Shown piece after piece: positions 7,601 through 20,788 of a DNA stretch of 64,000 nt (its first letter is position 1; each line of letters starts with the position of its first letter). Below the pieces are notes generated by a model that did no database searches, was not told the DNA's origin, and worked only from the letters and a program-made list of their open reading frames with translations. The position numbers and the translations under genes were made by a program. The stretch comes from Mycolicibacterium doricum (GTDB lineage Bacteria > Actinomycetota > Actinomycetes > Mycobacteriales > Mycobacteriaceae): positions 186,001-250,000 of the forward strand of contig NZ_AP022605.1 in assembly GCF_010728155.1 (NCBI RefSeq), in the 5' to 3' direction.

Positions 7601-7682
7601 GCACGCGTTTTGCGGCGAGCGCGACCACGATGCCGGTCATCAGCAACCCGACGACGAGTCGGATCATAATCTGCGTATCCAC
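4665..7682 (-). CDS. etfD: EtfD-type membrane iron-sulfur reductase with repetitive C-terminal tail
   Basis: A 1005-residue protein. Five to six membrane helices lie in residues 5-235, like a cytochrome b/NarI-type anchor. Two 4Fe-4S clusters follow (CTECGRCQSQC at 298-308 and CTTCGACVEQCP at 409-420), then heterodisulfide-reductase CCG domains (GCAGAYED near 499, DPCYLGRH near 634, GLCCGAGG at 669-676). Its M. tuberculosis counterpart, Rv0338c, has been described as EtfD, passing electrons from electron-transfer flavoprotein to the menaquinone pool during fatty-acid oxidation. The last ~250 residues are Ala/Pro/Lys/Glu rich with four GLG[IL]AxGA[RK]RPG modules. Start GTG 7682 has a GGGAGG ribosome site about 6 bases upstream; ATG 7667 is an alternative. 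Confidence 0.9.
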   Translation of the reverse strand: MDTQIMIRLVVGLLMTGIVVALAAKRVLWLTKLIRSGAPTSEANNRKDNLGKRITTQFEEVFGQTRLLRWSIPGIAHFFTMWGFFILATVYLEAYGLLFDHDFHLPIIGTWDALGFLQDFFAVAVLLGIITFAIIRVRQEPKQHGRDSRFYGSHTGGAWLILFMIFNVIWTYALVRGAAADLGNLPYGNGAFFSHFMGWVLSPLGHDVNEWVETIALLLHIGVMLIFLLIVLHSKHLHIGLAPINVTFKRLPDALGPLLPIEYKGELIDFEDPPEDAQLGRGKIEDFTWKAYLDFTTCTECGRCQSQCPAWNTGKPLSPKLVIMNLRDHLFAKAPYILGDKESPLENTPAGGLGEEARGEKHSEKQSHDHVPESGFERILGSGPEQATRPLVGTEEQGGVIDPDVLWSCTTCGACVEQCPVDIEHIDHIVDMRRYQVMMESEFPGELGVLFKNLETKGNPWGQNAKDRTNWIDEVDFDVPVFGKDVESFEGYEYLFWVGCAGAYEDRAKKTTKAVAELLAIAGVKYLVLGEGETCNGDSARRSGNEFLFQQLAAQNVETLNDLFEGVERVDRKVVVTCPHCFNTLGREYPQVGGNYTVLHHTQLLNRLIRDKKLVPVTPVGGDGANGPDITYHDPCYLGRHNKVYEAPRELIGASGATLTEMPRHADRGLCCGAGGARMWMEEHIGKRVNTERTEEAIDTGASRIATGCPFCRVMMTDGVDEVAAARDIEKVEVLDVAQLLLGSLDTSTVTLPEKGTAAKEAEERAAKAAAAAPATAPEKAPAEESKAPAQAESPAQPAQPAQPAQAESPAQPGAKPVTGLGLAGGAKRPGAKKTAAAPAQAKAGTTEAKAETTEAPAAAPAKGLGIAAGARRPGAKKAPAEASPNEGAGTVVQPPNVDPDKAAAGTEAADSADSDLGLASKPEPEVKGLGIASGARRPGAKKKAPAPAAKPADEPTTESAPEAEAERPAQPESAAGTGDARVVGDEPPVKGLGIAKGARRPGKR

Positions 7683-7818: not shown

Positions 7819-10356
7819 CTAACTCGACGGGGCCACAAGTGCGCGCAGCATCGACAGCATTTCCGACCGCGATTCCGCCCCGAGCCGGCGGCGGATCCGA
7901 GCCACATGGTGTTCGACCGTCTTCGCTGAGATGAACAGTTGCGCGCCGATGTCTCGGTACGGCATCCCCAGCAGTAGGAGCTCGGCCACCTCACGTTCGC
8001 GCTGCGAGAGCTGCGCCGAGGCGGTGGGGCGTGCCGCCGACGTGGGGCACGGCGCTGACGTCGAAGTCGGCGCGGCGGTCTCCGCCGGGACTTCGGCACC
8101 GGCCACGCTCTGCTTGAGGTCGCGCGCGAGCTGCAGCATCGCCTGCGACACCCGGCCGTCCGAGGTCTGCAGAGCCGCCTGACCGGCCAGCCGTGTGCCG
8201 TCCCAGGTGTGGCCGAACTGGGCCAGCCCGCGGGCAGCGGTCGTCACCTCGCCGACGTCGATGTGGTTGGCGAGCACCCGCAACCAGGTGCGACCGGCCG
8301 TGGCCAGCGCTTTCGCGAATGCGCTCTGAGCCTGCTCGTCGCGGCTGGCGGCGGTCAGCGCCTGCCCGTGCGGCGCGACGGCCTCCGGGGAATTCGCCAA
8401 GATGCCGGCGTGCACACCGGCCCAGTGCAGCGGCACCGACCACAACACCGGATCGCCCAGCGCCGCGAGCAGGGAGAACGCCTCGTCGAGGGGGTGCTTC
8501 AGCCGATCCACCTGCCGCAACCGCGCCGCGGCCACCCACAGCTCGCCGAGCGGGAGCAGCGTGAACAGGTCGACGGAGTATTCGGCCAGCACCTCCATCG
8601 CGGAGTACCAGTGCATCTGCATCGCGCCGCTGTCACCGCTGCGACGCGCGATCGCCGTCTGGAGCGCGGCCGCCCACAGCGCGTCGCGGCGGTGCAGGTC
8701 GGTGCCCGGCCCCGGAACCGCGGCGGCCGCGGCCGGTAACTTCCCGTCCTGCATATGCGTCCAGCCCAGCAGTAGCCGGTGCCGGTGCGTCACGAAGATC
8801 GCATCGCCGGATCCGTTGTCGCGTCCGACGCGGACCGCCCGGCTGACCACACTGCGGGCGCGTACCGGGTCGCCGCCGTGGAGGGCGGCCAGTGTCACGA
8901 CCGCGGCCGGGGTGTCCGGGGTGACGCCGCCCCGGCCGTGGTCGGTGTTCAGCGACTGTCCCAGCCGTGCCGCCGCGATCGGATAGGGCTCGTCGAGGGA
9001 CAGCAGGAGTCCTTCGGCGAGGCTGCGGGCCGCCCGCGCGATCGACGTCGGCGGCCCGGCGGCCGGGGTCTGCCCGAGCGCCTTGGCGGTGCTCCCGTCG
9101 CCCGCGGCGAGTGCGGCGACGGTACCCGCTGCGCTCAGCAGCGCGTCCGGCGACGGGCCCAGCCAGCGGAAGAGGTCGAGTGCCTGCGTGGCGCTGCCGT
9201 CGTGCATCGCGATGCTGGCCGAGATCCGCACCGCCGCGGCCCGCTCCTCGGGGTCCTGCGAGGTGAGCAGTTCATCGGCGATCCGGCCCGCTGTCGCGCA
9301 GTCTCCCGTCAGCGCGAGTGCGTCGGCCAGTTGCGCGCTCAATGCGGTGGCGCCGGCGTCGGCGGCAGCCCGGTACAGCCGTGCCGCGCCGGCGGCTTCG
9401 TTGCCGGTGTGGGCTGCCAGGTCGGCAAGCGCGGCGGCAAGCCGCTCGTCGCGTAAGCCATGCTCAGCCATCCGTAGCGCGAGGTCGGCTGTCAGAGTGG
9501 AAAGTTCGAGCTGCGAACAGAGCAGTGACACCTCGATGTCGTGGTGGCGCGCGGCGCCGACGATCTGGGCGAGCCCGTCGTGCACCGTGCGCAGGAAGCT
9601 GTGGTGATAGCTCGGTTCGAGCAGCCCACTGGCCCGTGCGCGGTCGACCACGGCCAGCGCGGCGTCCGACGGCATGTGCAGCGCCGCGGCGACGTCATCG
9701 GGCCCCATTTCCGGGCTCAGCGACGCCACCAGAAGTGTGTCGAGCAGCGGTTCGTCGAGTCGGCGCAACCGTTCGATCAGCGCGATGCGCGCAGTCTGCC
9801 GTATCGCCGCCGCGCCGTCACCGACCGCGGCGAGCGCGGGCCGCAGGAGGAACGGCAGACCGGCGGTGACTGTCATCAGCAGCCGGACCACCTCGGGTGC
9901 CGGGGCGGCGGCGTGCGTCGCGGCCATGGCACGGCCCACCTCCACTGCCGTGACGGACCCCACTGCGACAGCGGGGTTCTCCCGCTCGAGCGCGGTGACC
10001 AGTCCCCGCAGCGCGGCGTGGTGGGCCAGCGGTTGGGTGGCGATCACGACCGTCGACGCAGAATCGGCCACCAGGTCGGTGAGCCGTTCGAGGTCGACGA
10101 TCTCCAGTAGGTGCGCATCGTCGACGACGACTGCGGCGTCGGCGGGATCCTCGGGGCGCGGCGGGCGGGACAGCACCGGACGGCCGCCCGACCGCAGAAC
10201 CGTGCGCACCGCGGCGAGCACGGTCGATTTGCCTGTCCCGATGCCGCCGGTGACCAGCATCTTCATGGGCGCGGCGGGATCCGCCTCGATCGCCGCGACG
10301 GCCTCGCGCGCAGCGGCCGGGAACTCCGACTGACGGTGCGGCGCCGGGTTTGCCAT
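7819..10356 (-). CDS. iniR: IniR-type STAND/LuxR transcriptional regulator
   Basis: An 845-residue signal-transduction ATPase. Walker A GGIGTGKST is at residues 37-45 and Walker B AVVVDDAH at 75-82. A long helical, TPR-like middle follows. A C-terminal LuxR helix-turn-helix spans about 780-842 (LSQREREVAELLLLG, then ISAKTVEHHVARIRRRL). It sits where M. tuberculosis has Rv0339c, reported as IniR, an activator of iniBAC that responds to trehalose. Here it is second in a minus-strand operon, 9 bp after the Hsp70-like gene. It probably controls the diverging ini genes through the 12.2-12.4 kb region; that is inferred from context. Confidence 0.85.
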   Translation of the reverse strand: MANPAPHRQSEFPAAAREAVAAIEADPAAPMKMLVTGGIGTGKSTVLAAVRTVLRSGGRPVLSRPPRPEDPADAAVVVDDAHLLEIVDLERLTDLVADSASTVVIATQPLAHHAALRGLVTALERENPAVAVGSVTAVEVGRAMAATHAAAPAPEVVRLLMTVTAGLPFLLRPALAAVGDGAAAIRQTARIALIERLRRLDEPLLDTLLVASLSPEMGPDDVAAALHMPSDAALAVVDRARASGLLEPSYHHSFLRTVHDGLAQIVGAARHHDIEVSLLCSQLELSTLTADLALRMAEHGLRDERLAAALADLAAHTGNEAAGAARLYRAAADAGATALSAQLADALALTGDCATAGRIADELLTSQDPEERAAAVRISASIAMHDGSATQALDLFRWLGPSPDALLSAAGTVAALAAGDGSTAKALGQTPAAGPPTSIARAARSLAEGLLLSLDEPYPIAAARLGQSLNTDHGRGGVTPDTPAAVVTLAALHGGDPVRARSVVSRAVRVGRDNGSGDAIFVTHRHRLLLGWTHMQDGKLPAAAAAVPGPGTDLHRRDALWAAALQTAIARRSGDSGAMQMHWYSAMEVLAEYSVDLFTLLPLGELWVAAARLRQVDRLKHPLDEAFSLLAALGDPVLWSVPLHWAGVHAGILANSPEAVAPHGQALTAASRDEQAQSAFAKALATAGRTWLRVLANHIDVGEVTTAARGLAQFGHTWDGTRLAGQAALQTSDGRVSQAMLQLARDLKQSVAGAEVPAETAAPTSTSAPCPTSAARPTASAQLSQREREVAELLLLGMPYRDIGAQLFISAKTVEHHVARIRRRLGAESRSEMLSMLRALVAPSS

Positions 10357-10365
10357 CGTGGGTGG

Positions 10366-12177
10366 TCAGGCGCCGCCGTCGGGGACGGGCACCGTCGTCG
10401 GTGGGTCCGGCGGATCGACCGTTGTCGGCGGCGGTTGGACCGTCGTGGTCGGCGGTGGCTGCGTCGTGGTCGGCTGCGTGGTGGTCGGCTGCGTGGTGGT
10501 CGGGCGGGTGGTGGTCGTGGTCGGCTGGGTGGTCGTGGTCGTCGCGGTGGTGGTCGTCGCGGTCGTGGTGGTCGGCTGCGTGGTGGTCGTCGTGCCCTGC
10601 GTCGTCGTGGGCCCAGGTGGCGGCGGCTGGCTGACGCTGGTCGTCGCCGCGCCGTCGGGGCCGATCGTGACGGTGGTCACCGGAGGCGGCGGGGCCTGAG
10701 GCGACGGCTCCATCGACACCCTCGTCGAGGTCTCGGTCACCGGTGTCGAGTCGCCTTCGGCGCCGGTCAACGTGGCCGCCAACCCGCCGAGCGCCAGCAG
10801 CGCCGCCGCGGCGGCGGTACCGAACAGCACCGGCGGGCGTTTGTACCAGGGCAGCGGCCGAGGCTCCTGCTCGTCACCGTCCGCGTTACCGGCGTCGTCG
10901 GGTGCGAACGCGATCGGCGAACGCGCACCGGTCACCGCCGGGTCGTAATCCTCACCGGCGTACGGCACGGGTTCACCGGCGGGCTCGTCGTCCTGCGACC
11001 AGGCCAGCGCGCGGAAGGTCGCCGAGGAGGCCCCGTCCGCCGCAGCGGCCCCGGCGGCGAGGCCGGCCGCGCCCGCGGCCCAGGCCGCAGGCCCCATGCT
11101 CGTCGCGGCGTCGGCGGCCGCGGCCATGCCGGTGGGAGCGTCGGAGTCCGCGCTCTGGTTGGCCACCAGCGCCGCGCCGGCCGCGACGTTGAGGCCAGAC
11201 TCCGGGGTCGTGACAACCGGGGCCCGCAGCTGCTCGGAGAACCGCTGGGTGACCAGCGGAATGGCCGCCCCTCCGCCGACCGTGGCGACCGCGGTCACGT
11301 TCGCCACCGGAATCTCGTTGCGCCGCAACGTGTCGTCGATCGCGTTCAGCAGTCCGCCGAGTGGTCCGGAGATCAGCTGTTCGAGTTCGGGACGTGTCAC
11401 CCGGATGTCCGACTGCACACCGGGCAGTTCGACCGGCACCGCGGTCGCGGTCTCGGCGGACAGGCGCTCCTTGGCCCGGCGGCATTCCTCGCGCAGGCGA
11501 GCGAGCGATCCGACCGCGGCGGTGCTCGCTGGATCAGCGGCCCCGGAATCGGCGATACCGGCCAGCACGTGGTTGAGCAGGGCCTGGTCGATCCCGTCGC
11601 CGGAGAACTCCGGGTACCGCATGGTCTGGCCGACGGCGTCGAGGTTGGCGCCCGCGTCGGCCAGCGAGATGCTGCTGCCGCTGCCGCCGAGGTCGACCAG
11701 GACGACCACGCCCTGGTCGGGCAGTCCCGGGGCGGCCTGCAGCGCGGCGAACGCGGCGGTCGAATCGGGGATCAGCGCGGCGGGCACGCCGTGCGGGGCG
11801 AGATTCGGACGGGCACGCAGCGCGCCGCGAAGCGCCCCGACCGTGCCAGGACCCCAGTGCGAGGGCACCGCGATGGCGATCGGCGAGCCGCCGTCGACCG
11901 TGCGGGCCATCGCGTCGAGCGCCTCGGCGAGCACCAGTTCACCGCGGTGCGCCGAACCGTCGGCGGCGACGAGCGGAACCGGGTCACCGACCCGGTCGAC
12001 GAAACCGCGCAGCACGAGGCCGGGTCGGTCGAGGTTGGGATTCTCGGCGGGTACGCCGACCTCGGGCGCCCGGTCGGCGAAGAGGGTGAGGATGGCTCGT
12101 CGGATCACCGGCGGCCGGCCAACGCGGGCCGCCACCAGGTTCGTCATCCCGATCGACAACCCCAAGGGTTCGGTCAT
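10366..12177 (-). CDS. Membrane-anchored Hsp70-like protein with Thr-rich tail
   Basis: A 603-residue protein starting at ATG 12177, with a GGAG ribosome site about 10 bases before it. Residues 1-350 have the Hsp70/actin fold: GLSIGMTNL (phosphate 1), VDLGGSGSSIS (phosphate 2) and VATVGGGAAIPLV (adenosine). The phosphate-1 aspartate of true Hsp70s is Ser here, so ATP hydrolysis may be lost. An Ala-rich linker leads to LPWYKRPP, one membrane helix, then a tail of about 130 residues that is mostly Thr, Pro and Gln, likely outside the membrane and a plausible O-mannosylation target. It is paralogous to the gene at 17873-19774. It is first in the operon with iniR and divergent from the ini genes. 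It has no substrate-binding or lid domain. Confidence 0.85.
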   Translation of the reverse strand: MTEPLGLSIGMTNLVAARVGRPPVIRRAILTLFADRAPEVGVPAENPNLDRPGLVLRGFVDRVGDPVPLVAADGSAHRGELVLAEALDAMARTVDGGSPIAIAVPSHWGPGTVGALRGALRARPNLAPHGVPAALIPDSTAAFAALQAAPGLPDQGVVVLVDLGGSGSSISLADAGANLDAVGQTMRYPEFSGDGIDQALLNHVLAGIADSGAADPASTAAVGSLARLREECRRAKERLSAETATAVPVELPGVQSDIRVTRPELEQLISGPLGGLLNAIDDTLRRNEIPVANVTAVATVGGGAAIPLVTQRFSEQLRAPVVTTPESGLNVAAGAALVANQSADSDAPTGMAAAADAATSMGPAAWAAGAAGLAAGAAAADGASSATFRALAWSQDDEPAGEPVPYAGEDYDPAVTGARSPIAFAPDDAGNADGDEQEPRPLPWYKRPPVLFGTAAAAALLALGGLAATLTGAEGDSTPVTETSTRVSMEPSPQAPPPPVTTVTIGPDGAATTSVSQPPPPGPTTTQGTTTTTQPTTTTATTTTATTTTTQPTTTTTRPTTTQPTTTQPTTTQPPPTTTVQPPPTTVDPPDPPTTVPVPDGGA

Positions 12178-12255
12178 GGTGGCATGTCTCCTGTCTGGAC
12201 CGGCCACCACCATAACGCCGGAATCCCCACATCCTCGGGAAATCCCCCTAGTGGC

Positions 12256-12284
12256 GCAAAGCCCCTAACGGCAAAGCCCCTAAC
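12256..12284. repeat. Tandem CCCCTAAC-type box, two copies
   Basis: GCAAAGCCCCTAAC occurs at 12256-12269 and again at 12271-12284 (15-bp period). A related CCCCCTA lies just upstream, near 12243. The same CCCCTAA core recurs upstream of iniB at 13067-13108. Recurrence before both IniB-N genes suggests a shared activator site. Confidence 0.65.
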
Positions 12285-12345
12285 AGTGCGGGGCCGGATG
12301 TGGGCTGCGCACCGATCCGGCCGACGTCCGGCGTGCATAGCATCG

Positions 12346-12385
12346 TGACAAGCGGATCGGGGGACTGACAAGCGGTTCGGGGGAC
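12346..12385. repeat. Tandem 20-bp direct repeat upstream of the IniB-N gene
   Basis: Two adjacent copies of TGACAAGCGG-[at]-TCGGGGGAC lie at 12346-12365 and 12366-12385, differing at one base. They lie 60-100 bp before the start at 12446. They may be a direct-repeat operator or a recent slippage duplication. Confidence 0.7.
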
Positions 12386-12445
12386 TGGAGTGCCGACCCG
12401 CATGGACACGAACCGTCTTCGGATCGTAAATGGGAAAGGTGCCCG

Positions 12446-12973
12446 ATGGCTAACTCGCTACTCGACTTCGTGCTGTCGCTGGTGCGGGACCCCGACGCCG
12501 CCGCACGCTACGCGGCCGACCCGGCCGCTGCCATCGCCGACGCTCAGCTGACCGGTGTGACCAGCGTCGATGTCGACAACCTCATCCCGGTGGTGACGGA
12601 ATCGATGCCGATGGCCGCGCCGTCGATCGGCCCGGACCCCTTCGGGGCCGAGGCCGCCGGCAACGTGTGGTCCAGCAACGTGTGGTCCAGCGGCGCCGCC
12701 ACCGCCGCCTTCGATGCGTTCGCCGACCCGGCGCCCACATTCGCCGTCATCGACACTGCCTCCGCCGTTATCGACACCACCGATGAGTTCGACCGGTCCG
12801 TCGACGCGCTCACGGCACCGGACGCGTTGGTGGACACGGCATCGCCGCAGTTCGCGGACCCGGCGCTCGACGACGCGACGACGGCCGGGACCGATCTCGA
12901 CGACGTGTGGGGAGAAGCCCTCGACGACGCCCGGTCGGCCGACCACACCCCCGGGTTCGATCCGTTCGACTGA
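12446..12973 (+). CDS. IniB N-terminal domain small protein (Rv0340-like)
   Basis: A 175-residue protein. Residues 1-50 (LLDFVLSLVRDPDAAARY, then ADPAAAIADAQLTGV) form the IniB N-terminal helical domain also found at the start of iniB. The rest is acidic, low in basic residues, and ends GFDPFD. It resembles Rv0340, the gene just before iniB in M. tuberculosis. It has a tandem NVWSS duplication at about residues 73-82. There is no signal peptide or membrane segment. The ribosome site GGAAAGG precedes ATG 12446. A strong terminator follows, so iniB has its own promoter. Function unknown. Confidence 0.85.
   Translation: MANSLLDFVLSLVRDPDAAARYAADPAAAIADAQLTGVTSVDVDNLIPVVTESMPMAAPSIGPDPFGAEAAGNVWSSNVWSSGAATAAFDAFADPAPTFAVIDTASAVIDTTDEFDRSVDALTAPDALVDTASPQFADPALDDATTAGTDLDDVWGEALDDARSADHTPGFDPFD
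12662..12691 (+). repeat. 15-bp in-frame tandem duplication
   Basis: The unit AACGTGTGGTCCAGC occurs twice back to back inside the Rv0340-like gene and encodes NVWSS-NVWSS. It looks like a slippage duplication; the repeated Trp-containing motif may matter for binding. Confidence 0.8.
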
Positions 12974-12990
12974 CCTCTCCCGATAACCGA

Positions 12991-13019
12991 ACCCGCGCGG
13001 ATTTCCCGCGCGGGTTTTT
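12991..13019 (+). terminator. Rho-independent terminator after the Rv0340-like gene
   Basis: A perfect 10-bp GC-rich stem (12991-13000 paired with 13006-13015) with loop ATTTC, followed by a T run ending at 13019. It begins 18 bp after the stop at 12973. This is the clearest intrinsic terminator in the window and separates the Rv0340-like gene from iniB. Confidence 0.9.
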
Positions 13020-13066
13020 GGTGCGTGAACTGCGACTATTCCGCCTTTCCCCCGGCTCCCCCGTAG

Positions 13067-13108
13067 ATCCCCTAATCCCCTAACGGACCTAAACGCACGC
13101 CCCCTATG
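13067..13108. promoter_or_regulatory. CCCCTAA box cluster upstream of iniB
   Basis: Between the terminator and iniB lie CCCCTAAT and CCCCTAAC (about 13069-13084), then ACCTAAAC and CCCCCTATG (to 13108), spaced roughly 8-10 bp. The same core lies upstream of the Rv0340-like gene, so this is a candidate activator region for iniBAC. The rest of 13020-13238 contains a GAAAGG ribosome site and no other clear signal. Confidence 0.5.
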
Positions 13109-13238
13109 CGGATCGCCGAGGCAGGGGTGGCAACCCCGTTTGCCGGGTGTCGCGAACTCCATAACGTGGTGTCCAGATCGCCGGAGGGCCGGCGAGACAA
13201 CCTCCCCGGGACACCGGGAAGATACGAAAGGCAGTCAC

Positions 13239-14303
13239 ATGAACATCATCGACTTCATCCTCGACCTGTTCCGCAACCCGGGCTCGGCGGCCTACTTCGT
13301 CGTCGACCCGGACGGTGCACTGCGCGACGCGGGCCTGCCGAACGTGACCGCCGCGCAGCTGGCGTCGGTGGCCGCCACGGCCGCACCCGCCGGCTACGCG
13401 CTCGGCGGCGGCGACCCGATCGTCGGCCTGCAGCGGGCGGTCGCCGACCACCACCAGCTCGCCTCGAACTTCGCCTCGCCGTTCTCGCCGCAGACCTCGT
13501 TCGCGCCGACGACCGAGTTCGCCAGCCGCAACGACACCGACCTGCTCAGCGGGAACAATGTCCCGGTCGCCAGCCCGATCCAGGACGCCGGCGCCAACGC
13601 CCAGAACGGTGCCTTCAACCTGGGATTCGGTGACATCACCCTCGGCGACAAGACCTCCAACACCGCCACCGACGGCGGCGTGGTGGTCGCCGGTGACAAC
13701 GACGGCGACATCGTCAGCGGTGACGGCGCCGCGCTCGGCGACGGCAACACGATGAACAACGGCGACATCCTCGCCGGCTCCGGCTCCAACGTGGTCGTCG
13801 GCAAGGACAACGAGGTCGAGGACAACTCGCAGACCGCCGGCGGGGACCTCATCGCCGACAACGACGCTCCGGTGCTCAACGACGTCGACACCAGCGGCGG
13901 CAACGGCGGCGGTGCGGACGGCGGTGGCAGCCTGATCGGGATCGGCGGCGGCAACGCGGTCGGCGGCGACGGCGGCGACGGCGGCGGCATCATCATCACC
14001 GACAACGACGTCAACGCCGGTACGCAGATCGACGGCGACTACGGCAGCGACAATGTCGAGGACAACTCGGTCAACACCTCGGTGGAGGCCAACACCTCCA
14101 CCTCGACCGAGAGCTCGTTCGAGGACAACTCCTCGAGCTACGAGTCGAACATCGGCTCCGGCAACGACACCGCGATCGGATCGGGCAACCAGACCGACAC
14201 CGATCTGTTCTCCGGCAACGACACCGAATTCGAGACCAATACCGGTATCGAGACCGACGTCGCGTCGAACAACAACACCAAGACTGAGCTGGACGTCTTC
14301 TGA
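13239..14303 (+). CDS. iniB: IniB, Gly/Asp/Asn-rich isoniazid-inducible protein
   Basis: A 354-residue protein starting at ATG 13239 (MNIIDFILDLFRNPG), with GAAAGG about 6 bases upstream. Residues 1-50 form the IniB N-terminal domain, the same as in the preceding gene. The rest is extremely rich in Gly, Asp, Asn, Ser and Thr with loosely repeated GDN, GNN and DND units, consistent with a repetitive beta or disordered surface protein. iniB is the first gene of the operon induced by cell-wall inhibitors in mycobacteria; its role is not known. There is no classical signal peptide. A hairpin separates it from iniA. Confidence 0.9.
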   Translation: MNIIDFILDLFRNPGSAAYFVVDPDGALRDAGLPNVTAAQLASVAATAAPAGYALGGGDPIVGLQRAVADHHQLASNFASPFSPQTSFAPTTEFASRNDTDLLSGNNVPVASPIQDAGANAQNGAFNLGFGDITLGDKTSNTATDGGVVVAGDNDGDIVSGDGAALGDGNTMNNGDILAGSGSNVVVGKDNEVEDNSQTAGGDLIADNDAPVLNDVDTSGGNGGGADGGGSLIGIGGGNAVGGDGGDGGGIIITDNDVNAGTQIDGDYGSDNVEDNSVNTSVEANTSTSTESSFEDNSSSYESNIGSGNDTAIGSGNQTDTDLFSGNDTEFETNTGIETDVASNNNTKTELDVF

Positions 14304-14322
14304 TCGAGAATCGAAACAACGC

Positions 14323-14355
14323 AACTGGCGGGGACCGACATGGTCGCCGCCAGTT
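14323..14355 (+). promoter_or_regulatory. Intercistronic hairpin between iniB and iniA
   Basis: AACTGGCGG (14323-14331) pairs with CCGCCAGTT (14347-14355), and inner GACC/GGTC extend the stem around a GACAT loop. No T run follows, so it is more likely an mRNA processing or stability element or a weak attenuator than a terminator. It lies 20 bp after the iniB stop. Confidence 0.6.
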
Positions 14356-14398
14356 CGCGCGCTTACCGTGAGGACAATCCTGGGTGAGAGGAGGCGAC

Positions 14399-16261
14399 AT
14401 GACCCAACCGAGTGGCCCCGCCAAGTCGATCTCCGACACGCGCAAGGTGGTCACCGAGCTCATCGAGCACACCACCAAGATCGCCGAGGACAACGGCCGC
14501 GGCGACCTGGTGGCACGGCTGGCGCGCGCCCGCAGACGCATCGGTGACCCGCAGATCCGGGTGGTGATCGCCGGACAGCTCAAACAGGGCAAGAGCCTGC
14601 TGCTCAACTCGCTGCTCAACATGCCGGTGGCCAGGGTCGGCGACGACGAGTCGACGGTCCTGGCCACCGTCGTGTCGTACGCCGAACAGCCGTCGGCGCG
14701 GCTGGTGGTGGCGCGGCCCGACGGGGAGGAACCCGAACTCGTCGAGATCCCGACCACCGACCTTGGCAAGGATCTGCGGCGCGCGCCGCAGGCCGGCGGA
14801 CGTGAGGTGTTGCGCGTCGAGGTGACGGTACCCAGCCCGCTGCTCAAGGGCGGCCTGGCGTTCGTCGACACCCCGGGCGTGGGCGGTCACGGACAACCCC
14901 ATCTGTCCGCGACGCTGGGCCTGCTGCCCGACGCCGACGCGATGCTGATGATCAGCGACACCAGCCAGGAGTTCACCGAACCGGAGATGACGTTCATCCG
15001 GCAGGCGCTGGAGATCTGCCCGGTCGCCGCGATCGTCGCGACCAAGACGGACCTGTACCCGCACTGGCGCCAGGTGGTCGACACCGACGCCGCCCACCTG
15101 CACCGCGCCGGCATCACCATCCCGATGATCCCCGCCTCCTCGACGCTGCGCGGCCACGCCGTGCAGCTCAACGACAAGGAACTCAACGACGAGTCCAACT
15201 TCCCGGCGATCGTGAAGTTCCTCTCCGAGCAGGTGCTCTCCCGCAACAACGACCGCGTGCGCGACCAAGTGGTCGGTGAGGTCCGCGCGGCGGCCGAACA
15301 TCTCACGATGGCGGTGCAGTCGGAGCTGTCCGCGCTCAACGACCCTCAGTCGGGTGCCAACCTGACCGCCGACCTGCAGCGCCGCAGGAAGGAGGCGGAG
15401 GAGGCGCTGCAGCAGACCGCGCTGTGGCAGCAGGTGCTCAACGACGGCACCGCCGACCTCACCGCCGACGTCGACCACGACCTGCGGCAGCGCTTCCGCA
15501 ACATCACCTTCCACACCGAACGGGTCATCGACTCCGGCGACCCGACGCTGCACTGGGCCGAGATCGGCGCGGAACTCGAAGAGGCCGTGGCGACCGCCGT
15601 CGGCGACAATTTCGTGTGGGCCTACCAGCGGGCCGAGGCGCTGGCCGCCGAGGTGGCCCGCACGTTCATGGAGGCCGGTCTTGACGCGGTGCGGATGCCC
15701 GCGATCGACGCCAGCGAGATGGGGGCGGAGTTCGGCGAGTTCCGTTCCCTCGCTCACCTCGAGGCCAAACCGCTCAAGATCGGTCACAAGATCGTGACCG
15801 GGATGCGCGGCTCGTACGGCGGCGTGCTGATGTTCGGCATGCTGACCTCGTTCGCGGGGCTCGGCATGTTCAACCCGCTGTCGCTGGGTGCCGGCTTCGT
15901 CCTCGGCCGCAAGGCCTACAAGGAGGACATGGAGAACCGGATGCTGCGGGTGCGCAGTGAGGCTAAGACCAACGTGCGCCGGTTCGTCGACGACGTGGCG
16001 TTCGTGGTCGGCAAGGAATCACGCGACCGGCTCAAGGGCATCCAGCGCCAACTCCGCGACCACTACCGTGAGATCGCCAATCAGACGACCCGCTCACTCA
16101 ACGAGTCGCTGCAGGCCACGATCGCCGCCGCGAAACTCCAGGAGTCCGAGCGCAACGCCCGCACCAAGGAGCTGCAACGGCAGCTCAACATCCTGCGGCA
16201 GGTCGTCGAACACGCCGAGAAACTCGGCTCCACGGCCGCTGCGCCGGTCTCCGCGCCCTGA
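14399..16261 (+). CDS. iniA: IniA, dynamin-like GTPase
   Basis: A 620-residue bacterial dynamin-like protein. G1 GQLKQGKS is at residues 59-66, G3 DTPG at 157-160 and G4 TKTD at 215-218. Helical stalk regions surround a hydrophobic membrane-inserting segment at about 474-503 (GVLMFGMLTSFAGLG, then NPLSLGAGFVLG). M. smegmatis IniA has been shown to bind and remodel membranes, and iniA is linked to isoniazid and ethambutol tolerance in mycobacteria. ATG 14399 has a strong GGAGG about 5 bases upstream. It follows iniB and precedes iniC in one operon. Confidence 0.93.
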   Translation: MTQPSGPAKSISDTRKVVTELIEHTTKIAEDNGRGDLVARLARARRRIGDPQIRVVIAGQLKQGKSLLLNSLLNMPVARVGDDESTVLATVVSYAEQPSARLVVARPDGEEPELVEIPTTDLGKDLRRAPQAGGREVLRVEVTVPSPLLKGGLAFVDTPGVGGHGQPHLSATLGLLPDADAMLMISDTSQEFTEPEMTFIRQALEICPVAAIVATKTDLYPHWRQVVDTDAAHLHRAGITIPMIPASSTLRGHAVQLNDKELNDESNFPAIVKFLSEQVLSRNNDRVRDQVVGEVRAAAEHLTMAVQSELSALNDPQSGANLTADLQRRRKEAEEALQQTALWQQVLNDGTADLTADVDHDLRQRFRNITFHTERVIDSGDPTLHWAEIGAELEEAVATAVGDNFVWAYQRAEALAAEVARTFMEAGLDAVRMPAIDASEMGAEFGEFRSLAHLEAKPLKIGHKIVTGMRGSYGGVLMFGMLTSFAGLGMFNPLSLGAGFVLGRKAYKEDMENRMLRVRSEAKTNVRRFVDDVAFVVGKESRDRLKGIQRQLRDHYREIANQTTRSLNESLQATIAAAKLQESERNARTKELQRQLNILRQVVEHAEKLGSTAAAPVSAP

Positions 16262-16346
16262 TCCTCGGGCGCCGTCTGGCAAGCTCAAGGGGTCAGCAGT
16301 CGGGTAACTGGAACGGACCGGGCAAACACTGAGCACAAGCGACCAA

Positions 16347-17831
16347 GTGCGCGCGATCCTGGGCGGCACCATCGCGGCCTACCGGGAGGATCCGGCGTAC
16401 CGCCAGCGCCCCGACGTGCACAACGAACTCGAGCGCATCGGTGCCCGGCTCAACCAGCCGGTCCGGATCGCGCTGGCCGGCACGCTCAAGGCCGGTAAGT
16501 CGACACTGGTCAACGCGTTGGTGGGCGAAGAGATCGCCCCGACCGACGCGACCGAGGCCACCCGACTCGTCACGTGGTTCCGCCACGGACCCACCCCGAA
16601 GGTGACTGCCAACCACCGCGGGGGCCGACGGTCCAACGTGCCGATCGCCCGCGACCCCCGCGAACGGGGCCTGACCTTCGACCTCGCCAGGCTCGATCCC
16701 GAAGACGTGCTCGACCTCGACGTGGAGTGGCCGGCCACCGAACTGGTCGACGCGACGATCATCGACACCCCCGGCACGTCGTCACTGTCGCGTGACGTGT
16801 CGGCGCGCACGCTGCGGCTGCTGGTGCCCGACGACGGGGTGCCCCGGGTCGACGCGGTGGTGTTCCTGCTGCGCACGCTCAACGCCGCCGACATCGCGCT
16901 GCTCAAGCAGATCGGTGAGCTGGTCGGCGGGTCGTCGGGGGCGCTCGGGGTGATCGGGGTGGCCTCGCGCGCCGACGAGATCGGCGCCGGGCGCATCGAC
17001 GCAATGTTGTCGGCCAAGGACGTCGCCACCCGATTCACCGAGGAAATGGACCGCACCGGCATCTGCCAGGCGGTCGTACCGGTGTCGGGCCTGCTCGCGC
17101 TGACCGCGCGGACCCTGCGGCAGAGCGAGTTCGTCGCGCTGGAGAAGCTCGCCGGCGTGGATCCCGCCGAGTTGGCCAAGGCCATGCTCTCGGTGGACCG
17201 GTTCATACGCGAGGACAGCCCGTTGCCCGTCGACGCGGCGGCCCGAGCCGCGCTGCTGGACCGGTTCGGCATGTTCGGGGTCCGCATCTCGATCGCCCTG
17301 CTGCGGGCCGGGGTGAAGGATTCGGTGGCACTGGCCGACGAACTGCTCGAACGCAGCGGGCTGGTGGTGTTGCGCGATGTGATCGACCAGCAATTCGCAC
17401 AGCGATCGGACCTGTTGAAGGCACATACGGCGCTGCTGTCGCTGCGGCAGTTCGTCCAGGTCCATCCGATCTTCGCGACGCCGTACATCATCGCCGACAT
17501 CGATCCGCTGCTCGCCGACACCCACGCGTTCGAGGAGCTGCGGTTGCTGAGCCAACTCCGTTCGCGCCCGACCACCTTGACCGACGACGAGATGGCCTCG
17601 CTGCGGCGGCTGATCGGCGGCTCCGGCACCGACGCGACGAGCCGGCTGGGACTGCAGCCCGAGGACCCGTGCGACGGGCCGCGCGCGGCGTTCGCCGCGG
17701 CTCAGCGGTGGCGCCGGCGCGCCGAGCATCCGCTCAACGATCCGTTCACCGCGAGGGCCTGCCGGGCGGCGGTTCGCAGTGCCGAAGCGCTGGTCGCCGC
17801 CTATGCGGCGAAGGGCAGCGGATCCCGCTAA
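16347..17831 (+). CDS. iniC: IniC, dynamin-like GTPase
   Basis: A 494-residue dynamin-family protein from GTG 16347. G1 GTLKAGKS is at 45-52 and G3 DTPG at 140-143, followed by VVFLLRTLNAADIALLKQ and the degenerate G4 SRADE. It lacks the long hydrophobic paddle of IniA, so it probably acts as a soluble partner. Six codons upstream in frame, CTG 16329 would give the N-terminus (M)STSDQVRAIL, which matches the M. tuberculosis IniC start as I recall it, so a CTG start is plausible. No clear ribosome site decides between them. Confidence 0.9.
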   Translation: MRAILGGTIAAYREDPAYRQRPDVHNELERIGARLNQPVRIALAGTLKAGKSTLVNALVGEEIAPTDATEATRLVTWFRHGPTPKVTANHRGGRRSNVPIARDPRERGLTFDLARLDPEDVLDLDVEWPATELVDATIIDTPGTSSLSRDVSARTLRLLVPDDGVPRVDAVVFLLRTLNAADIALLKQIGELVGGSSGALGVIGVASRADEIGAGRIDAMLSAKDVATRFTEEMDRTGICQAVVPVSGLLALTARTLRQSEFVALEKLAGVDPAELAKAMLSVDRFIREDSPLPVDAAARAALLDRFGMFGVRISIALLRAGVKDSVALADELLERSGLVVLRDVIDQQFAQRSDLLKAHTALLSLRQFVQVHPIFATPYIIADIDPLLADTHAFEELRLLSQLRSRPTTLTDDEMASLRRLIGGSGTDATSRLGLQPEDPCDGPRAAFAAAQRWRRRAEHPLNDPFTARACRAAVRSAEALVAAYAAKGSGSR

Positions 17832-17872
17832 CGTTCGCCTAACGTTTGAGCGCGCGGCGACGACAAACAGGT

Positions 17873-19774
17873 ATGCGCAATTCTGTGGGCGTATCCCTTG
17901 GCGCGGCCAACCTGGTCGCTGTCGCCGAGGGACGCCCGATCATCCGGCCCGCGGCACTGACGCTCGGCGGGGCGAGGATCACCGGTTTCGTCGACCGGGT
18001 GGGTGACCCCGTGCCGCTGGTCGCGCCCGACGGATCGGCACACTACGGCGGTCAGCTGGCCGCCGCCGCGATCGAGGCGCTGACCCACGCCGCCCACCCC
18101 TACCGACGGCCCGATGCCGCGGCGGTCGCCGTGCCCGCGCACTGGTCGCCGACGGCGGTGGCGGCGTTGCGCGCGGTTGTGCCGCAGTTGACCGTCGTCT
18201 CGGATGCCGTCGCGGCGCTCACCGCGCTGCAGGCCAATCCCGGGCTGCCCGCGCGGGGAGTCGTCGTGCTGTGTGACTTCGGGGCGACCGGAACCAGTAT
18301 CACGCTCGCCGATGCGGGCGACGGGTTCCGTGTGATCGGTGAGACGGTGCGCTACGAAGACTTCTCCGGAGACCTGATCGACCAGGTGGTGCTGCGCCAT
18401 GTGCTCGCCGATCTCGAGGCCGATCCGAGTGGTACGTCGGCGGTGGCGTCGCTGGCCGTGTTGCGCGATGAGTCGCGGGCTGCCAAGGAGCGACTGTCGG
18501 TGCACACCGCGACGGCGCTGACCGGGCCGAATAGCTCGCACACCAGCGTGCGGCTGACCCGGCCCGAACTCGAGTCACTGCTCGCCGGGCCGCTCGCCGG
18601 GCTTGTCGACACCCTCGTCGACGTGCTGCAGCGCAACCGGGTGGCCCCCGCGCAGCTCGCCGCGGTCGCGACAGTCGGTGGTGGGGCACGGATACCGCTT
18701 GTCACGCAAGGCATTTCGGAGGCGCTGCGGATGCCGGTGGTCACCGGCCCCTATGCGCAGGTCGCCGCGGCGGCCGGTGCGGACCTGATCGCGTCCCGTG
18801 GCGGAGAACTGGATGCGGTCACCACGATCACCCCGGTGTCCGCCTCCTCGGTGAGCGACGCGCCGGCGACCGAGGCCGCGGTACCACTGGCCTGGTCCGC
18901 CGAGACGGTGGACTCCGACGCGGCGACACAGTATGCGTTGCCCGTCTACGACGCCGCGATGGCGCGGCCCGGGATCCGCTTCGACCAGGTGCCGGTCGGG
19001 GATTGTGCGGGCGGCTCGCCGTGGTACCGCAAGCGGGGGGCGATGTTCGCCGGCGCCGCCTGTCTGGCGGCCTTGGCGGCGACGGGTCTGATCCTCGCCT
19101 CGCACACCGGCGACGCGGATGCAGTGCAGGCGGGCTCGTCGGCGATCACCGCTCCGGTCGCGACGCAGCCGATGGAGCAACCCGACCCAGCTCCCGAGGC
19201 GGCGCCGGCCCCGGTCGTCAGCGAGCGGGCGGTGGCCGGCGCACCCGCACCTGCGCCGAGGGCCGTTCAAGCGCCGGCGCAGCAGCGACCGAACACCCCG
19301 GCCGAGCGGCGGGTGGCGTCGAAACAGGTGGCACCGGGTCGGGTAGCACCCGCGCCTGCGCCCGCCGCCGCGCCTGCCCCCGCCGCCGCGCCTGCCCCCG
19401 CCTTCGCGCCTGCCCCCGCCGCCGCACCTGCCGCTGCGCCGTCGATGGGTCTGCCCCGGATTCCGGTGCCTGCGTTCACGTTGCCGCGGCCCACTCCGCC
19501 GCCGGCCTCGACGCCGGCCCCGACACAGCCGTCACCGACACAGCCGTCACCGACACAGCCGTCACCGACACAGCCGTCACCGCCGCCATCGCGGCCAGCC
19601 CCGTCACCGATGCCCGAGCCGGAATCCGAGCCGCAAGCCACGCCTCCGCGGGTGCAAGATCCTGCGCCGACGCAGCAACCCCCGCCCGCGCCGGAACCGG
19701 CAGCCGAGGCGCAGCCGGCGTCGTCGGCCGAACCGCAGCCGGAATGCATGCCGGAGGCCGGAACCGTCTGCTAG
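17873..19774 (+). CDS. Second membrane-anchored Hsp70-like protein, Pro/Ala-rich tail
   Basis: A 633-residue protein starting at ATG 17873. The N-terminal 320 residues are a clear paralog of the Hsp70-like protein at 10366-12177: GVSLGAANLVA, TGFVDRVGDPVPLVAPDGSAH, VVLCDFGATGTSITLAD and VATVGGGARIPLVTQG. Again the phosphate-1 Asp is Ser. It continues with SPWYRKRG, one membrane helix (GAMFAGAACLAALAATG) and about 220 residues of Ala/Pro/Gln/Glu-rich tail ending with two Cys. The tail includes a PTQPS repeat. It follows iniC by 41 bp on the same strand and is probably part of the ini operon. No lid domain. Role unknown. Confidence 0.85.
   Translation: MRNSVGVSLGAANLVAVAEGRPIIRPAALTLGGARITGFVDRVGDPVPLVAPDGSAHYGGQLAAAAIEALTHAAHPYRRPDAAAVAVPAHWSPTAVAALRAVVPQLTVVSDAVAALTALQANPGLPARGVVVLCDFGATGTSITLADAGDGFRVIGETVRYEDFSGDLIDQVVLRHVLADLEADPSGTSAVASLAVLRDESRAAKERLSVHTATALTGPNSSHTSVRLTRPELESLLAGPLAGLVDTLVDVLQRNRVAPAQLAAVATVGGGARIPLVTQGISEALRMPVVTGPYAQVAAAAGADLIASRGGELDAVTTITPVSASSVSDAPATEAAVPLAWSAETVDSDAATQYALPVYDAAMARPGIRFDQVPVGDCAGGSPWYRKRGAMFAGAACLAALAATGLILASHTGDADAVQAGSSAITAPVATQPMEQPDPAPEAAPAPVVSERAVAGAPAPAPRAVQAPAQQRPNTPAERRVASKQVAPGRVAPAPAPAAAPAPAAAPAPAFAPAPAAAPAAAPSMGLPRIPVPAFTLPRPTPPPASTPAPTQPSPTQPSPTQPSPTQPSPPPSRPAPSPMPEPESEPQATPPRVQDPAPTQQPPPAPEPAAEAQPASSAEPQPECMPEAGTVC
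19520..19579 (+). repeat. 15-bp minisatellite, four identical copies
   Basis: CCGACACAGCCGTCA is repeated four times without mismatch, encoding PTQPS units in the tail of the second Hsp70-like protein. A looser 18-bp Pro/Ala repeat (GCGCCTGCCCCCGCC core) lies just upstream at about 19350-19430. Copy number is likely to vary among strains. Confidence 0.9.
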
Positions 19775-19778
19775 CAGG

Positions 19779-20297
19779 TCAGCGGCCCGGCCGATCCAGT
19801 CTCGGCACCGTGATCGTCACCGTGCTGGTGCTCGTCTCCACGGTGGTGGGCGGAGGCGTCGTGGTGGTGGTCGTGGTGCTCGGCGTCGTCGTGGTTGTCG
19901 TCGTGGTAGTCGGCGCCGTGGTGGTCTCCGGCGCAGAGGTCGCCTCCGGCGCTACGGTGGTCTCCGCTGGCGACTCGGTCACCGTCTGCGGCGGAACCAC
20001 CGCGGGCGCCTCCGCCGTCGTGGTCGTGGTCGTCGTGGTCGTGGTGGATTCGGACGAGGATTCATCCGACATCAACTGCACGATGAGCCAGATGATCAGC
20101 GCCACCAGCAGGGCCGCAAGCGCCCCGAGTCCGATCAGGGCGCCGGGTTTGCGATACCACGGCTGGGGTTCCTCGGGCGGCGGCTGGTCGTACGCGCCGG
20201 TGTAATCGCCGTACTGGGTCGGCTCGGCGCTGTAGGCGTTCGAGTACTGGGTCGGCTCGTCGTCCGACTGGTTCGGATCTTCAGGAGGTCGCGCCAC
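19779..20297 (-). CDS. Single-pass membrane protein with Thr-rich tail
   Basis: A 172-residue protein from GTG 20297. An acidic Gln/Tyr-rich N-terminus (EPTQYSNAYSAEPTQYG, a doubled EPTQY unit) leads to QPWYRKPG. A strong membrane helix follows (ALIGLGALAALLVALIIWLI), then about 95 residues that are mostly Thr, Pro, Ala and Ser. Topology is predicted as cytoplasmic N-terminus and external tail. The PWYRKPG junction matches those of the two Hsp70-like proteins. It ends 4 bp from the stop of the convergent Hsp70-like gene. No known domain. Confidence 0.75.
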   Translation of the reverse strand: MARPPEDPNQSDDEPTQYSNAYSAEPTQYGDYTGAYDQPPPEEPQPWYRKPGALIGLGALAALLVALIIWLIVQLMSDESSSESTTTTTTTTTTAEAPAVVPPQTVTESPAETTVAPEATSAPETTTAPTTTTTTTTTPSTTTTTTTPPPTTVETSTSTVTITVPRLDRPGR

Positions 20298-20323
20298 GGG
20301 CTCCGATAGTAGGCGTCCTTTGC

Positions 20324-20788
20324 TCAGGGACGTGGGTAAAGCGTGCGTGTCTCGTTGAGTCGTGGCCGGTTGCGCGTCGTCGTTCGCGGCGACGACTCCT
20401 GCCCGCTCTCCTCCGACTCCTCTTCCTGGGTCCTGGACCGCCCCCGCGTGGTCGAGGTCTCCGACACCGGGGGAGGTGGCGCAGGCGCCGACTCCGGCGG
20501 GAGGTCCAGGTCCGTGGTCAGGGGCGGGCTGATGCGTGTGGTGGTGGTGGAGGCAGTCGCCGAGGTGGACCGGGAGGTCATCGACGAGAAGCTCGGGTCG
20601 ACGAAGTTCGTCGGCGCCTGCGGGGAGTCCCCGGCTCGCGACGCGTACATCACCCCGGCCACGACCAGCCCGATTGCGGCGATACCGGCGATGCTGGCCC
20701 CGAGCACTTTGCCGGTCGAGTGATGCCAAGGCGTCGACGCATCCGGCTGTCGACCGGAATGCTCGTCGTCGTCGGGGGCGCCCGTCAC
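20324..20788 (-). CDS. Small single-pass membrane protein with Ser/Thr/Pro-rich tail
   Basis: A 154-residue protein from GTG 20788. A polar N-terminus is followed by STPWHHSTGK, one membrane helix (VLGASIAGIAAIGLVVAGVMY) and a Ser/Thr/Pro-rich then Arg/Glu-rich tail. The architecture is the same as the next gene downstream (26 bp away), including a Pro-Trp junction before the helix. It is probably co-transcribed with that gene and with the upstream oxidoreductase gene (37-bp gap). Function unknown. Confidence 0.7.
   Translation of the reverse strand: MTGAPDDDEHSGRQPDASTPWHHSTGKVLGASIAGIAAIGLVVAGVMYASRAGDSPQAPTNFVDPSFSSMTSRSTSATASTTTTRISPPLTTDLDLPPESAPAPPPPVSETSTTRGRSRTQEEESEESGQESSPRTTTRNRPRLNETRTLYPRP

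What the first reader, a model, noticed from the sequence alone, without database searches (positions are those of the whole stretch)
7819..20788. Hsp70-fold membrane proteins flank iniB-iniA-iniC and iniR: a candidate composite envelope-stress system
Two paralogous, membrane-anchored Hsp70-like proteins border the ini genes. One is in the iniR operon and the other directly follows iniC. Together with two dynamins (IniA, IniC), two IniB-N proteins and two small Thr/Pro-tailed membrane proteins, they form a compact locus of nine genes. M. tuberculosis, as I know it, has iniR, Rv0340 and iniBAC but not the Hsp70-like pair. An actin-fold sensor coupled to membrane-remodelling GTPases would be a new type of envelope-repair module.
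Basis: partly seen in the sequence, partly recalled or inferred. Interest (0 to 1): 0.8.

Follow-up and report, generated by a model that had tools for sequence, protein, structure and literature searches.

The report
Overlooked Hsp70-fold partner of ini dynamins
A drug-induced cell-envelope stress gene cluster known from tuberculosis research (regulator IniR plus two membrane-remodelling dynamins) nearly always comes, in the genomes examined, with a further gene: a cut-down, often membrane-anchored relative of the chaperone Hsp70 that has had almost no attention and probably works with the dynamins or with the regulator.

Summary
All nine genes are present: iniR, Hsp70-like H1, iniB*, iniB, iniA, iniC, Hsp70-like H2 and two small membrane-protein genes. 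H1 (modelled) and, by sequence, H2 have a DnaK-type nucleotide-binding domain, no substrate-binding domain, one predicted membrane helix and a Pro-rich tail. In all 72 mycobacterial members tabulated, four catalytic Hsp70 residues are replaced, so a classical chaperone is unlikely. The neighbourhood is conserved far beyond close relatives. Of 66 same-genus genomes with iniR over the cut-off, 51 have H1; of the other 15, all 10 whose contig reaches past iniC have an Hsp70-like gene there. Outside the genus, 41 of 41 loci holding iniC and iniR, and 6 of 6 loci found by iniR in other orders of the class, carry one. Two extra iniR loci without dynamins lack it. A dnaK-like gene beside M. smegmatis iniR is already in print in one sentence (2017), and what I infer to be its product (MSMEG_0692; listed M. 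tuberculosis orthologue Rv0312) was recovered with the polar cell-wall protein FhaA (2025). That it is a regular part of ini appears undescribed (paper searches). Mechanism is inferred, not shown.

The parts
4665..7682 (-). flanking gene, homologue of EtfD (Rv0338c / MSMEG_0690); conserved neighbour, not part of the system
   Evidence: next to iniR in many loci; the EtfD name rests on gene order and a paper (MSMEG_0690 and rv0338c = EtfD)
7819..10356 (-). iniR, STAND ATPase / LuxR regulator of iniBAC
   Evidence: NF038181 1414.6 bits, cut-off 750
10366..12177 (-). H1: Hsp70-like nucleotide-binding domain + one predicted TM + Thr/Pro tail; ends 9 bases before iniR, probably one operon
12446..12973 (+). 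iniB* (Rv0340 family), divergent from H1
   Evidence: NF038176 176.9 bits, cut-off 100
13239..14303 (+). iniB
   Evidence: IniB_NTERM 61 bits, cut-off 40
14384..16261 (+). iniA, dynamin-like GTPase
   Evidence: PF00350 48 bits, cut-off 27
16347..17831 (+). iniC, dynamin-like GTPase
   Evidence: PF00350 40.4 bits, cut-off 27
17873..19774 (+). H2: second Hsp70-like membrane protein; ATG 41 bases after iniC
   Evidence: PF00012 48.3 bits; postC clade
19779..20297 (-). TM1: small protein with one predicted TM and a Thr-rich tail; juxtamembrane and TM stretch resembles that of H1 and H2, no nucleotide-binding domain
   Evidence: local alignment score to H1 73 against shuffled mean 23.6, sd 4.8, reached by 0 of 1000
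20324..20788 (-). TM2: small protein with one predicted TM and a Thr/Ser/Pro tail
   Evidence: score to H1 39, reached by 7 of 1000 shuffles

Best explanation
The Hsp70-like gene is a further regular component of the ini envelope-stress system (shown by gene order). Most likely its nucleotide-binding domain works as a non-chaperone, actin-fold adaptor for the dynamin pair IniA/IniC (inferred). In mycobacteria it is fixed in the membrane by one helix, reaches outward with a Thr/Pro-rich tail (inferred from sequence) and probably binds ATP without hydrolysing it well (inferred from residues). It would sit at sites of mycolate and peptidoglycan export, helped by contacts such as FhaA (one published crosslinking study), and recruit or license IniA and IniC there once IniR has switched the operon on. 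H2, an in-genus extra copy after iniC, would add more of this adaptor during stress.
For: (1) Hsp70-like gene in 41 of 41 non-genus loci that hold iniC and iniR and in 6 of 6 iniR loci in other orders of the class. In those six it is not next to iniR but on the dynamin side, and still present. (2) Same genus: 51 of 66 iniR genomes have H1: 48 directly 5' of iniR (recount) and 3 where a contig breaks between H1 and iniR and H1 lies beside iniB*. Of the 15 others, 10 of 10 whose contig reaches past iniC have an Hsp70-like gene after iniC; 9 of these 10, with four genes from two genomes without ini, form the sister clade (97/86) of the main H1 clade (18 of the 24 H1 rows), so the gene seems to have moved within the locus yet stayed. 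(3) Two extra iniR loci without dynamins have no Hsp70-like gene in 19 kb. (4) Dynamin pairs from loci without iniR: 20 of 31 have an Hsp70-like gene in the stretch; in L097, L101, L110, L112 it is directly 5' of the dynamins and ends in a predicted TM. (5) MSMEG_0692, inferred to be H1, was found only in FhaA complexes and in no control, with MviN, CwsA and TMM-transport proteins (PMC11898655 section 5). (6) IniA alone has low scission activity in vitro; its authors propose help from IniC (PMC6715688 passages), which leaves room for a further partner.
Against: In the order sample H1 is directly 5' of iniR in 40 of 41 loci, which fits an IniR partner at least as well. Two genomes without ini genes keep two Hsp70-like genes at the locus, and far copies exist apart from ini (H3; L034-L052). 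11 of the 31 dynamin pairs without iniR have none, and in several of the 20 it is 4-7 kb away. L064, 1 of the 10 post-iniC genes, is unplaced in the tree, and H1 by position is not one clade. Several distant members have no predicted C-terminal TM (L085-L088, L099, L111), so membrane anchoring is not universal. Point (3) is two loci in two genomes of one genus. In genome G106 iniR lies on another contig with no Hsp70-like gene in the 2 kb 5' of it held (L156). No interaction, expression or activity data exist for this genome.
Confidence: 0.42

Rival explanations
1. H1 is the membrane gatekeeper of IniR: like MalK or MalY with E. coli MalT (recalled), its nucleotide-binding domain holds the STAND activator inactive at the membrane and lets go when mycolate or peptidoglycan export fails.
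For: H1 ends 9 bases before iniR here and is directly 5' on the same strand in 40 of 41 order-level loci and 48 of 66 same-genus genomes, divergent from the target operon: a common layout for a regulator and its co-regulator. IniR over-expression gives constitutive iniBAC induction and trehalose induces it (PMC5760070, abstract and passages), which would fit a titrated inhibitor.
Against: In 6 of 6 class-level loci the Hsp70-like gene is not beside iniR. Two extra iniR loci without dynamins have none. IniR works in M. marinum and M. tuberculosis, for which the paper describes no dnaK-like gene beside iniR (PMC5760070, section 10).
Confidence: 0.32
2. A general scaffold of the cell-wall machinery (FhaA/MviN partner) that happens to sit beside ini; neither the dynamins nor IniR is its partner.
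For: Recovery with FhaA (may be indirect); Hsp70-like copies far from ini (H3, L034-L052) and two at the locus in genomes without ini.
Against: 47 of 47 non-genus loci holding iniR and the dynamins carry one nearby although gene order changes, which a bystander would hardly do.
Confidence: 0.16
3. Dedicated Hsp70 chaperone that folds or disassembles the dynamins or IniB.
For: True Hsp70 nucleotide-binding fold; many of the 33 distant rows keep catalytic residues (D8 28, E171 18, T199 20, D201 20).
Against: H1 has no substrate-binding domain: a helix predicted as TM follows a disordered linker. All 72 tabulated mycobacterial members lack D8, K70, T199 and D201.
Confidence: 0.05
4. Chance or inherited proximity among near relatives without functional meaning.
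For: Synteny decays slowly within a genus.
Against: Kept across handle families f1, f3, f14, f15, f16, f22 and f27 with changes of gene order; expectation about 0.014 per 19 kb.
Confidence: 0.03

Closest known systems
iniBAC / IniR system of mycobacteria (PMC5760070; IniA structure PMC6715688)
   Same: iniR, iniB*, iniB, iniA, iniC in the same order and with the same family assignments
   Different: an Hsp70-like gene is a regular member at order level; PMC5760070 mentions it in one sentence for M. smegmatis, and a term search of PMC6715688 for Hsp70 found nothing
Rv0312 / MSMEG_0692 'proline and threonine-rich protein' (PMC11898655, Table 1)
   Same: one TM helix, Pro/Thr-rich, ATP-binding annotation; by tag order MSMEG_0692 sits where H1 sits
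   Different: in the section read not described as Hsp70-fold or as an ini gene; Rv0312 is elsewhere in the M. tuberculosis genome (by tag number)
Hsp70 / DnaK
   Same: nucleotide-binding domain fold; G196 and D194 kept in all 72 mycobacterial rows
   Different: no substrate-binding domain in H1; D8, K70, T199, D201 replaced in mycobacteria; predicted membrane anchor
DO-GTPase systems with HSP70 and a substrate-domain-less HSP70 (PMC7159879, passages)
   Same: one or two paralogous GTPases with, in some loci, an Hsp70 lacking its peptide-binding domain
   Different: those GTPases are a separate TRAFAC family with GAP1 proteins, not dynamins; no IniR or IniB is mentioned in the passages seen

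Membership tests
ini system (IniR-IniBAC) | IniR equivalog | tested here: met
   NF038181 1414.6 bits, cut-off 750
ini system (IniR-IniBAC) | IniB N-terminal domain proteins (iniB, iniB*) | tested here: met
   NF038175 61 and 68.6 bits, NF038176 176.9 bits
ini system (IniR-IniBAC) | paired dynamin-like GTPases IniA and IniC | tested here: met
   PF00350 in both, order conserved
ini system (IniR-IniBAC) | induction by isoniazid, ethambutol or trehalose through IniR | not testable with these tools
   published for M. marinum and in part M. tuberculosis (PMC5760070, abstract and passages); no data for this genome
Hsp70 chaperone | nucleotide-binding domain fold | tested here: met
Hsp70 chaperone | catalytic residues D8, K70, E171, D194, T199, D201 (E. 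coli numbers and roles recalled) | tested here: not met
   72 of 72 mycobacterial rows lack D8, K70, T199 and D201; E171 is Asp in 72, D194 kept in 72 (sequence alignment only)
Hsp70 chaperone | substrate-binding domain | tested here: not met
   H1 model: disordered linker, then helix 448-471; Pfam match ends at profile position 372 of 599
Hsp70 chaperone | DnaJ and GrpE partners | not tested
   no search for partners was made
DO-GTPase / HSP70 conflict systems (PMC7159879) | DO-GTPase of TRAFAC clade with GAP1 protein | tested here: inconclusive
   IniA and IniC hit Dynamin_N; no GAP1 or DO-GTPase model was searched by name

The most novel reading that the evidence does not exclude
Actinobacterial dynamin pairs as a class use a substrate-domain-less, often membrane-attached Hsp70-fold protein as an adaptor or nucleotide switch, a kind of dynamin partner not described before as far as the paper searches show. 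The ini stress system is one instance; a second class of dynamin operons without iniR is another; and the present picture of IniA/IniC is incomplete because the partner does not sit beside ini in the species where the system was defined.
Probability: 0.33. Interest if true: 0.82.

Novelty: new variant of a known kind. Interest (0 to 1): 0.63.

Why it matters
iniBAC is a marker operon for drugs that block the mycobacterial wall, yet how IniR senses damage and how IniA and IniC act in cells is open. A conserved, overlooked gene that stays with the cluster through rearrangements is a direct candidate for the missing link between cell-wall synthesis, IniR and the dynamins. It can be tested by deleting one gene in the laboratory strain M. 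smegmatis.

Tried and rejected
A classical chaperone role was set aside for H1 (no substrate-binding domain, catalytic residues lost). A mobile-element origin found no support: no match to the H1 domain in 50,697 phage records and one in 72,556 plasmid records, a 2.66 Mb Nocardia farcinica replicon named plasmid 2; a scan of viral contigs with IniC matched 5 stretches by pattern, none confirmed. The idea that H1 serves IniR alone was weakened but not excluded. 'No Hsp70-like gene in M. tuberculosis' was dropped after PMC11898655 gave Rv0312 as the orthologue of MSMEG_0692. L107 and L089 first looked like iniR loci without an Hsp70-like gene or with a doubtful one; both have a diverged one, scored 180 and 155 bits by a wider model built without them. 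Paper searches (listings only, not all hits listed in 48, 73 and 100) showed no paper on an Hsp70-dynamin link except the 2017 sentence and, for other GTPases, PMC7159879.

Limits. The same-genus counts were read from the tables (recounted from the typed coordinates). The list was cut, so genomes without a listed adjacent H1 were read directly: 15, 3 contig-broken ones. Genomes with IniR pieces under the cut-off (G006, G031, G088) are not in the 66. The wide model was built from the window's H1 and 32 rows from loci L053 to L112, so 20 of the 41 loci are in part circular, although all 20 but L107 had been hit before with the mycobacterial model (L089 only weakly); the other 21 (in L113-L151) and the 6 were not used to build it. 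Of the 35 loci without iniR in the stretch, four (L073, L075, L076, L120) come from genomes whose iniR is on another contig; three of these have an Hsp70-like gene and L073 has not, but its iniR contig has one directly 5' of iniR (L154). They are left out of the '20 of 31'. Some of the 31 are cut by contig ends (L138, L147). In one search three distant rows were counted twice; one search corrects this (33 rows). The scan used H2 peptides and so favours H2-like loci. L093-L095 are extra flanks of in-genus loci and are not in the 76. The broken H2 of L019 and the broken gene of L043 were left out of the tree. TM helices rest on hydrophobicity and the H1 model; topology was not tested.

Full report
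What is there. The window is part of a 4.03 Mb one-contig genome. It belongs to Mycobacterium in the broad sense: close hits of H2 are in Mycobacterium sp. IS-1742 and IS-1496. In order lie etfD-like (-), iniR (-), H1 (-), iniB* (+), iniB (+), iniA (+), iniC (+), H2 (+), TM1 (-), TM2 (-) and, further on, the true dnaK (+). H1 ends 9 bases before iniR starts; the H2 ATG lies 41 bases after iniC. H1 and H2 are 43% identical over 463 aligned positions. A third paralogue, H3, lies about 37 kb from iniR.

Conservation in the genus. Of 98 same-genus genomes, 66 have IniR over the cut-off. H1 is directly 5' of iniR in 48 (recount); in 3 more a contig breaks between H1 and iniR, and H1 is beside iniB*. 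In 15 genomes iniR has no H1 beside it; in the 10 whose contig reaches past iniC, an Hsp70-like gene follows iniC, in 9 of them on the opposite strand. Six further in-genus loci from the order sample show H1 in five and a post-iniC gene in one. In the tree of 75 domains, 9 of the 10 post-iniC genes form, with the four 'pair' genes from two genomes without ini, the sister clade (97/86) of the main H1 clade, which holds 18 of the 24 rows labelled H1; the tenth (L064) is unplaced, and H1 by position is not one clade (L044, L069/L070 and the three rows from outside the genus fall elsewhere). H2 belongs to a separate clade of post-iniC genes. Two genomes without ini genes (L071, L072) keep two Hsp70-like genes where ini would be, which speaks against strict dependence on ini.

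Conservation beyond the genus. IniC was searched in 200 genomes of the order: 86 have a match at E 1e-30. All 76 non-genus places listed there were fetched and classified. IniR is in the stretch in 41, and an Hsp70-like gene in 41 of 41, directly 5' of iniR on the same strand in 40 (exception L079). IniR is not in the stretch in 35; an Hsp70-like gene is present in 23 and absent in 12. Four of the 35 (L073, L075, L076, L120) are from genomes with iniR on another contig; of the other 31, 20 have an Hsp70-like gene and 11 do not. Searching IniR in the same 200 genomes gave 60 genomes, all of which also have an IniC match. In 148 genomes of the class, IniR was found in 12, six of them outside the order; all six loci carry an Hsp70-like gene and the dynamin pair, with the Hsp70-like gene next to the dynamins and iniR at the other end. 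The Nocardia farcinica record NZ_LN868939 also has dnaK, iniC, iniA, an IniB-N protein and, divergent, an Hsp70-like gene followed by iniR. Pfam HSP70 hits 32 of the 34 rows of the distant alignment, H1 included.

Discriminating observations. Two extra iniR genes in two genomes (L152, L153) sit beside an IniB-N gene with neither dynamins nor an Hsp70-like gene in 19 kb. Dynamin pairs without iniR often carry an Hsp70-like gene; in L097, L101, L110 and L112 it is directly 5' of the dynamins and ends in a predicted TM helix. Together with the class-level gene order this puts the Hsp70-like gene more with the dynamins than with iniR, but on few independent cases. Against this, its usual place in the order is directly 5' of iniR; several distant members have no C-terminal TM; and in genome G106 iniR lies on another contig with no Hsp70-like gene in the 2 kb held 5' of it (L156), while one lies near its dynamins (L076).

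Published data. PMC5760070 (passages, section 10, abstract and introduction read): iniR synteny is conserved and 'M. [quoted passage not shown] trehalose induces iniBAC. PMC11898655 (section 5 read): MSMEG_0692, listed orthologue Rv0312, 'conserved hypothetical proline and threonine-rich protein', 1 TM helix, ATP binding, was found in at least four of five FhaA pull-downs (M. tuberculosis FhaA over-expressed in M. smegmatis, formaldehyde) and in no control, with MviN, CwsA and TMM-transport proteins; the authors call these direct or indirect interactors. That MSMEG_0692 is H1 is my inference from tag order: 0690 is EtfD (PMC13083937, passages), 0691 a putative transcriptional regulatory protein (PMC8088520, passage), 0695 IniA (PMC2945938, passages). 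PMC6715688 (passages): IniA alone has low scission activity and IniC may help. PMC7159879 (passages): another paired-GTPase system in which some loci have an HSP70 without its peptide-binding domain. PMC13413693: outline and a term search without hits. Other papers named in search listings were not opened.

Conclusion. That the Hsp70-like gene is a regular member of ini loci is shown by gene order. What it does is inferred. I favour a membrane adaptor for the dynamin pair (0.42) over a gatekeeper of IniR (0.32); both are testable in M. smegmatis.

Noticed in passing
L097, L101, L110, L112 (also L108): A second class of dynamin-pair operons without iniR carries an Hsp70-like gene directly 5' of the dynamins; in L097, L101, L110 and L112 the protein ends in a predicted TM helix.
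   Followed up: partly
L152 around 8091-10454 and L153 around 8684-11035: Extra iniR paralogues with a divergent IniB-N gene but no dynamins and no Hsp70-like gene.
   Followed up: partly
L071, L072: Two tandem Hsp70-like genes remain beside the etfD-like gene in genomes without ini genes.
   Followed up: partly
window 10366-12177 and relatives: The disordered linker between domain and TM holds a short conserved LAWS stretch, a possible docking motif (alignments).
   Followed up: no
window 19779-20297: TM1 looks like the membrane-and-tail part of H1 without the nucleotide-binding domain and lies near Hsp70-like genes in many loci.
   Followed up: partly
L061, L067, L163, L019: Interrupted frames: iniC in L061, iniA in L067 and L163, H2 in L019; decay or sequencing error, not resolved.
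   Followed up: no
PMC8088520 Table 2 (passage): An M. smegmatis cobK deletion strain carries a change in the 5' UTR of MSMEG_0691, which by tag order is iniR; vitamin B12 pathway mutations are reported to induce iniBAC in M. marinum (PMC5760070 introduction).
   Followed up: no
L020 6432-8402: In one species a further Hsp70-like gene lies between iniA and iniC.
   Followed up: partly
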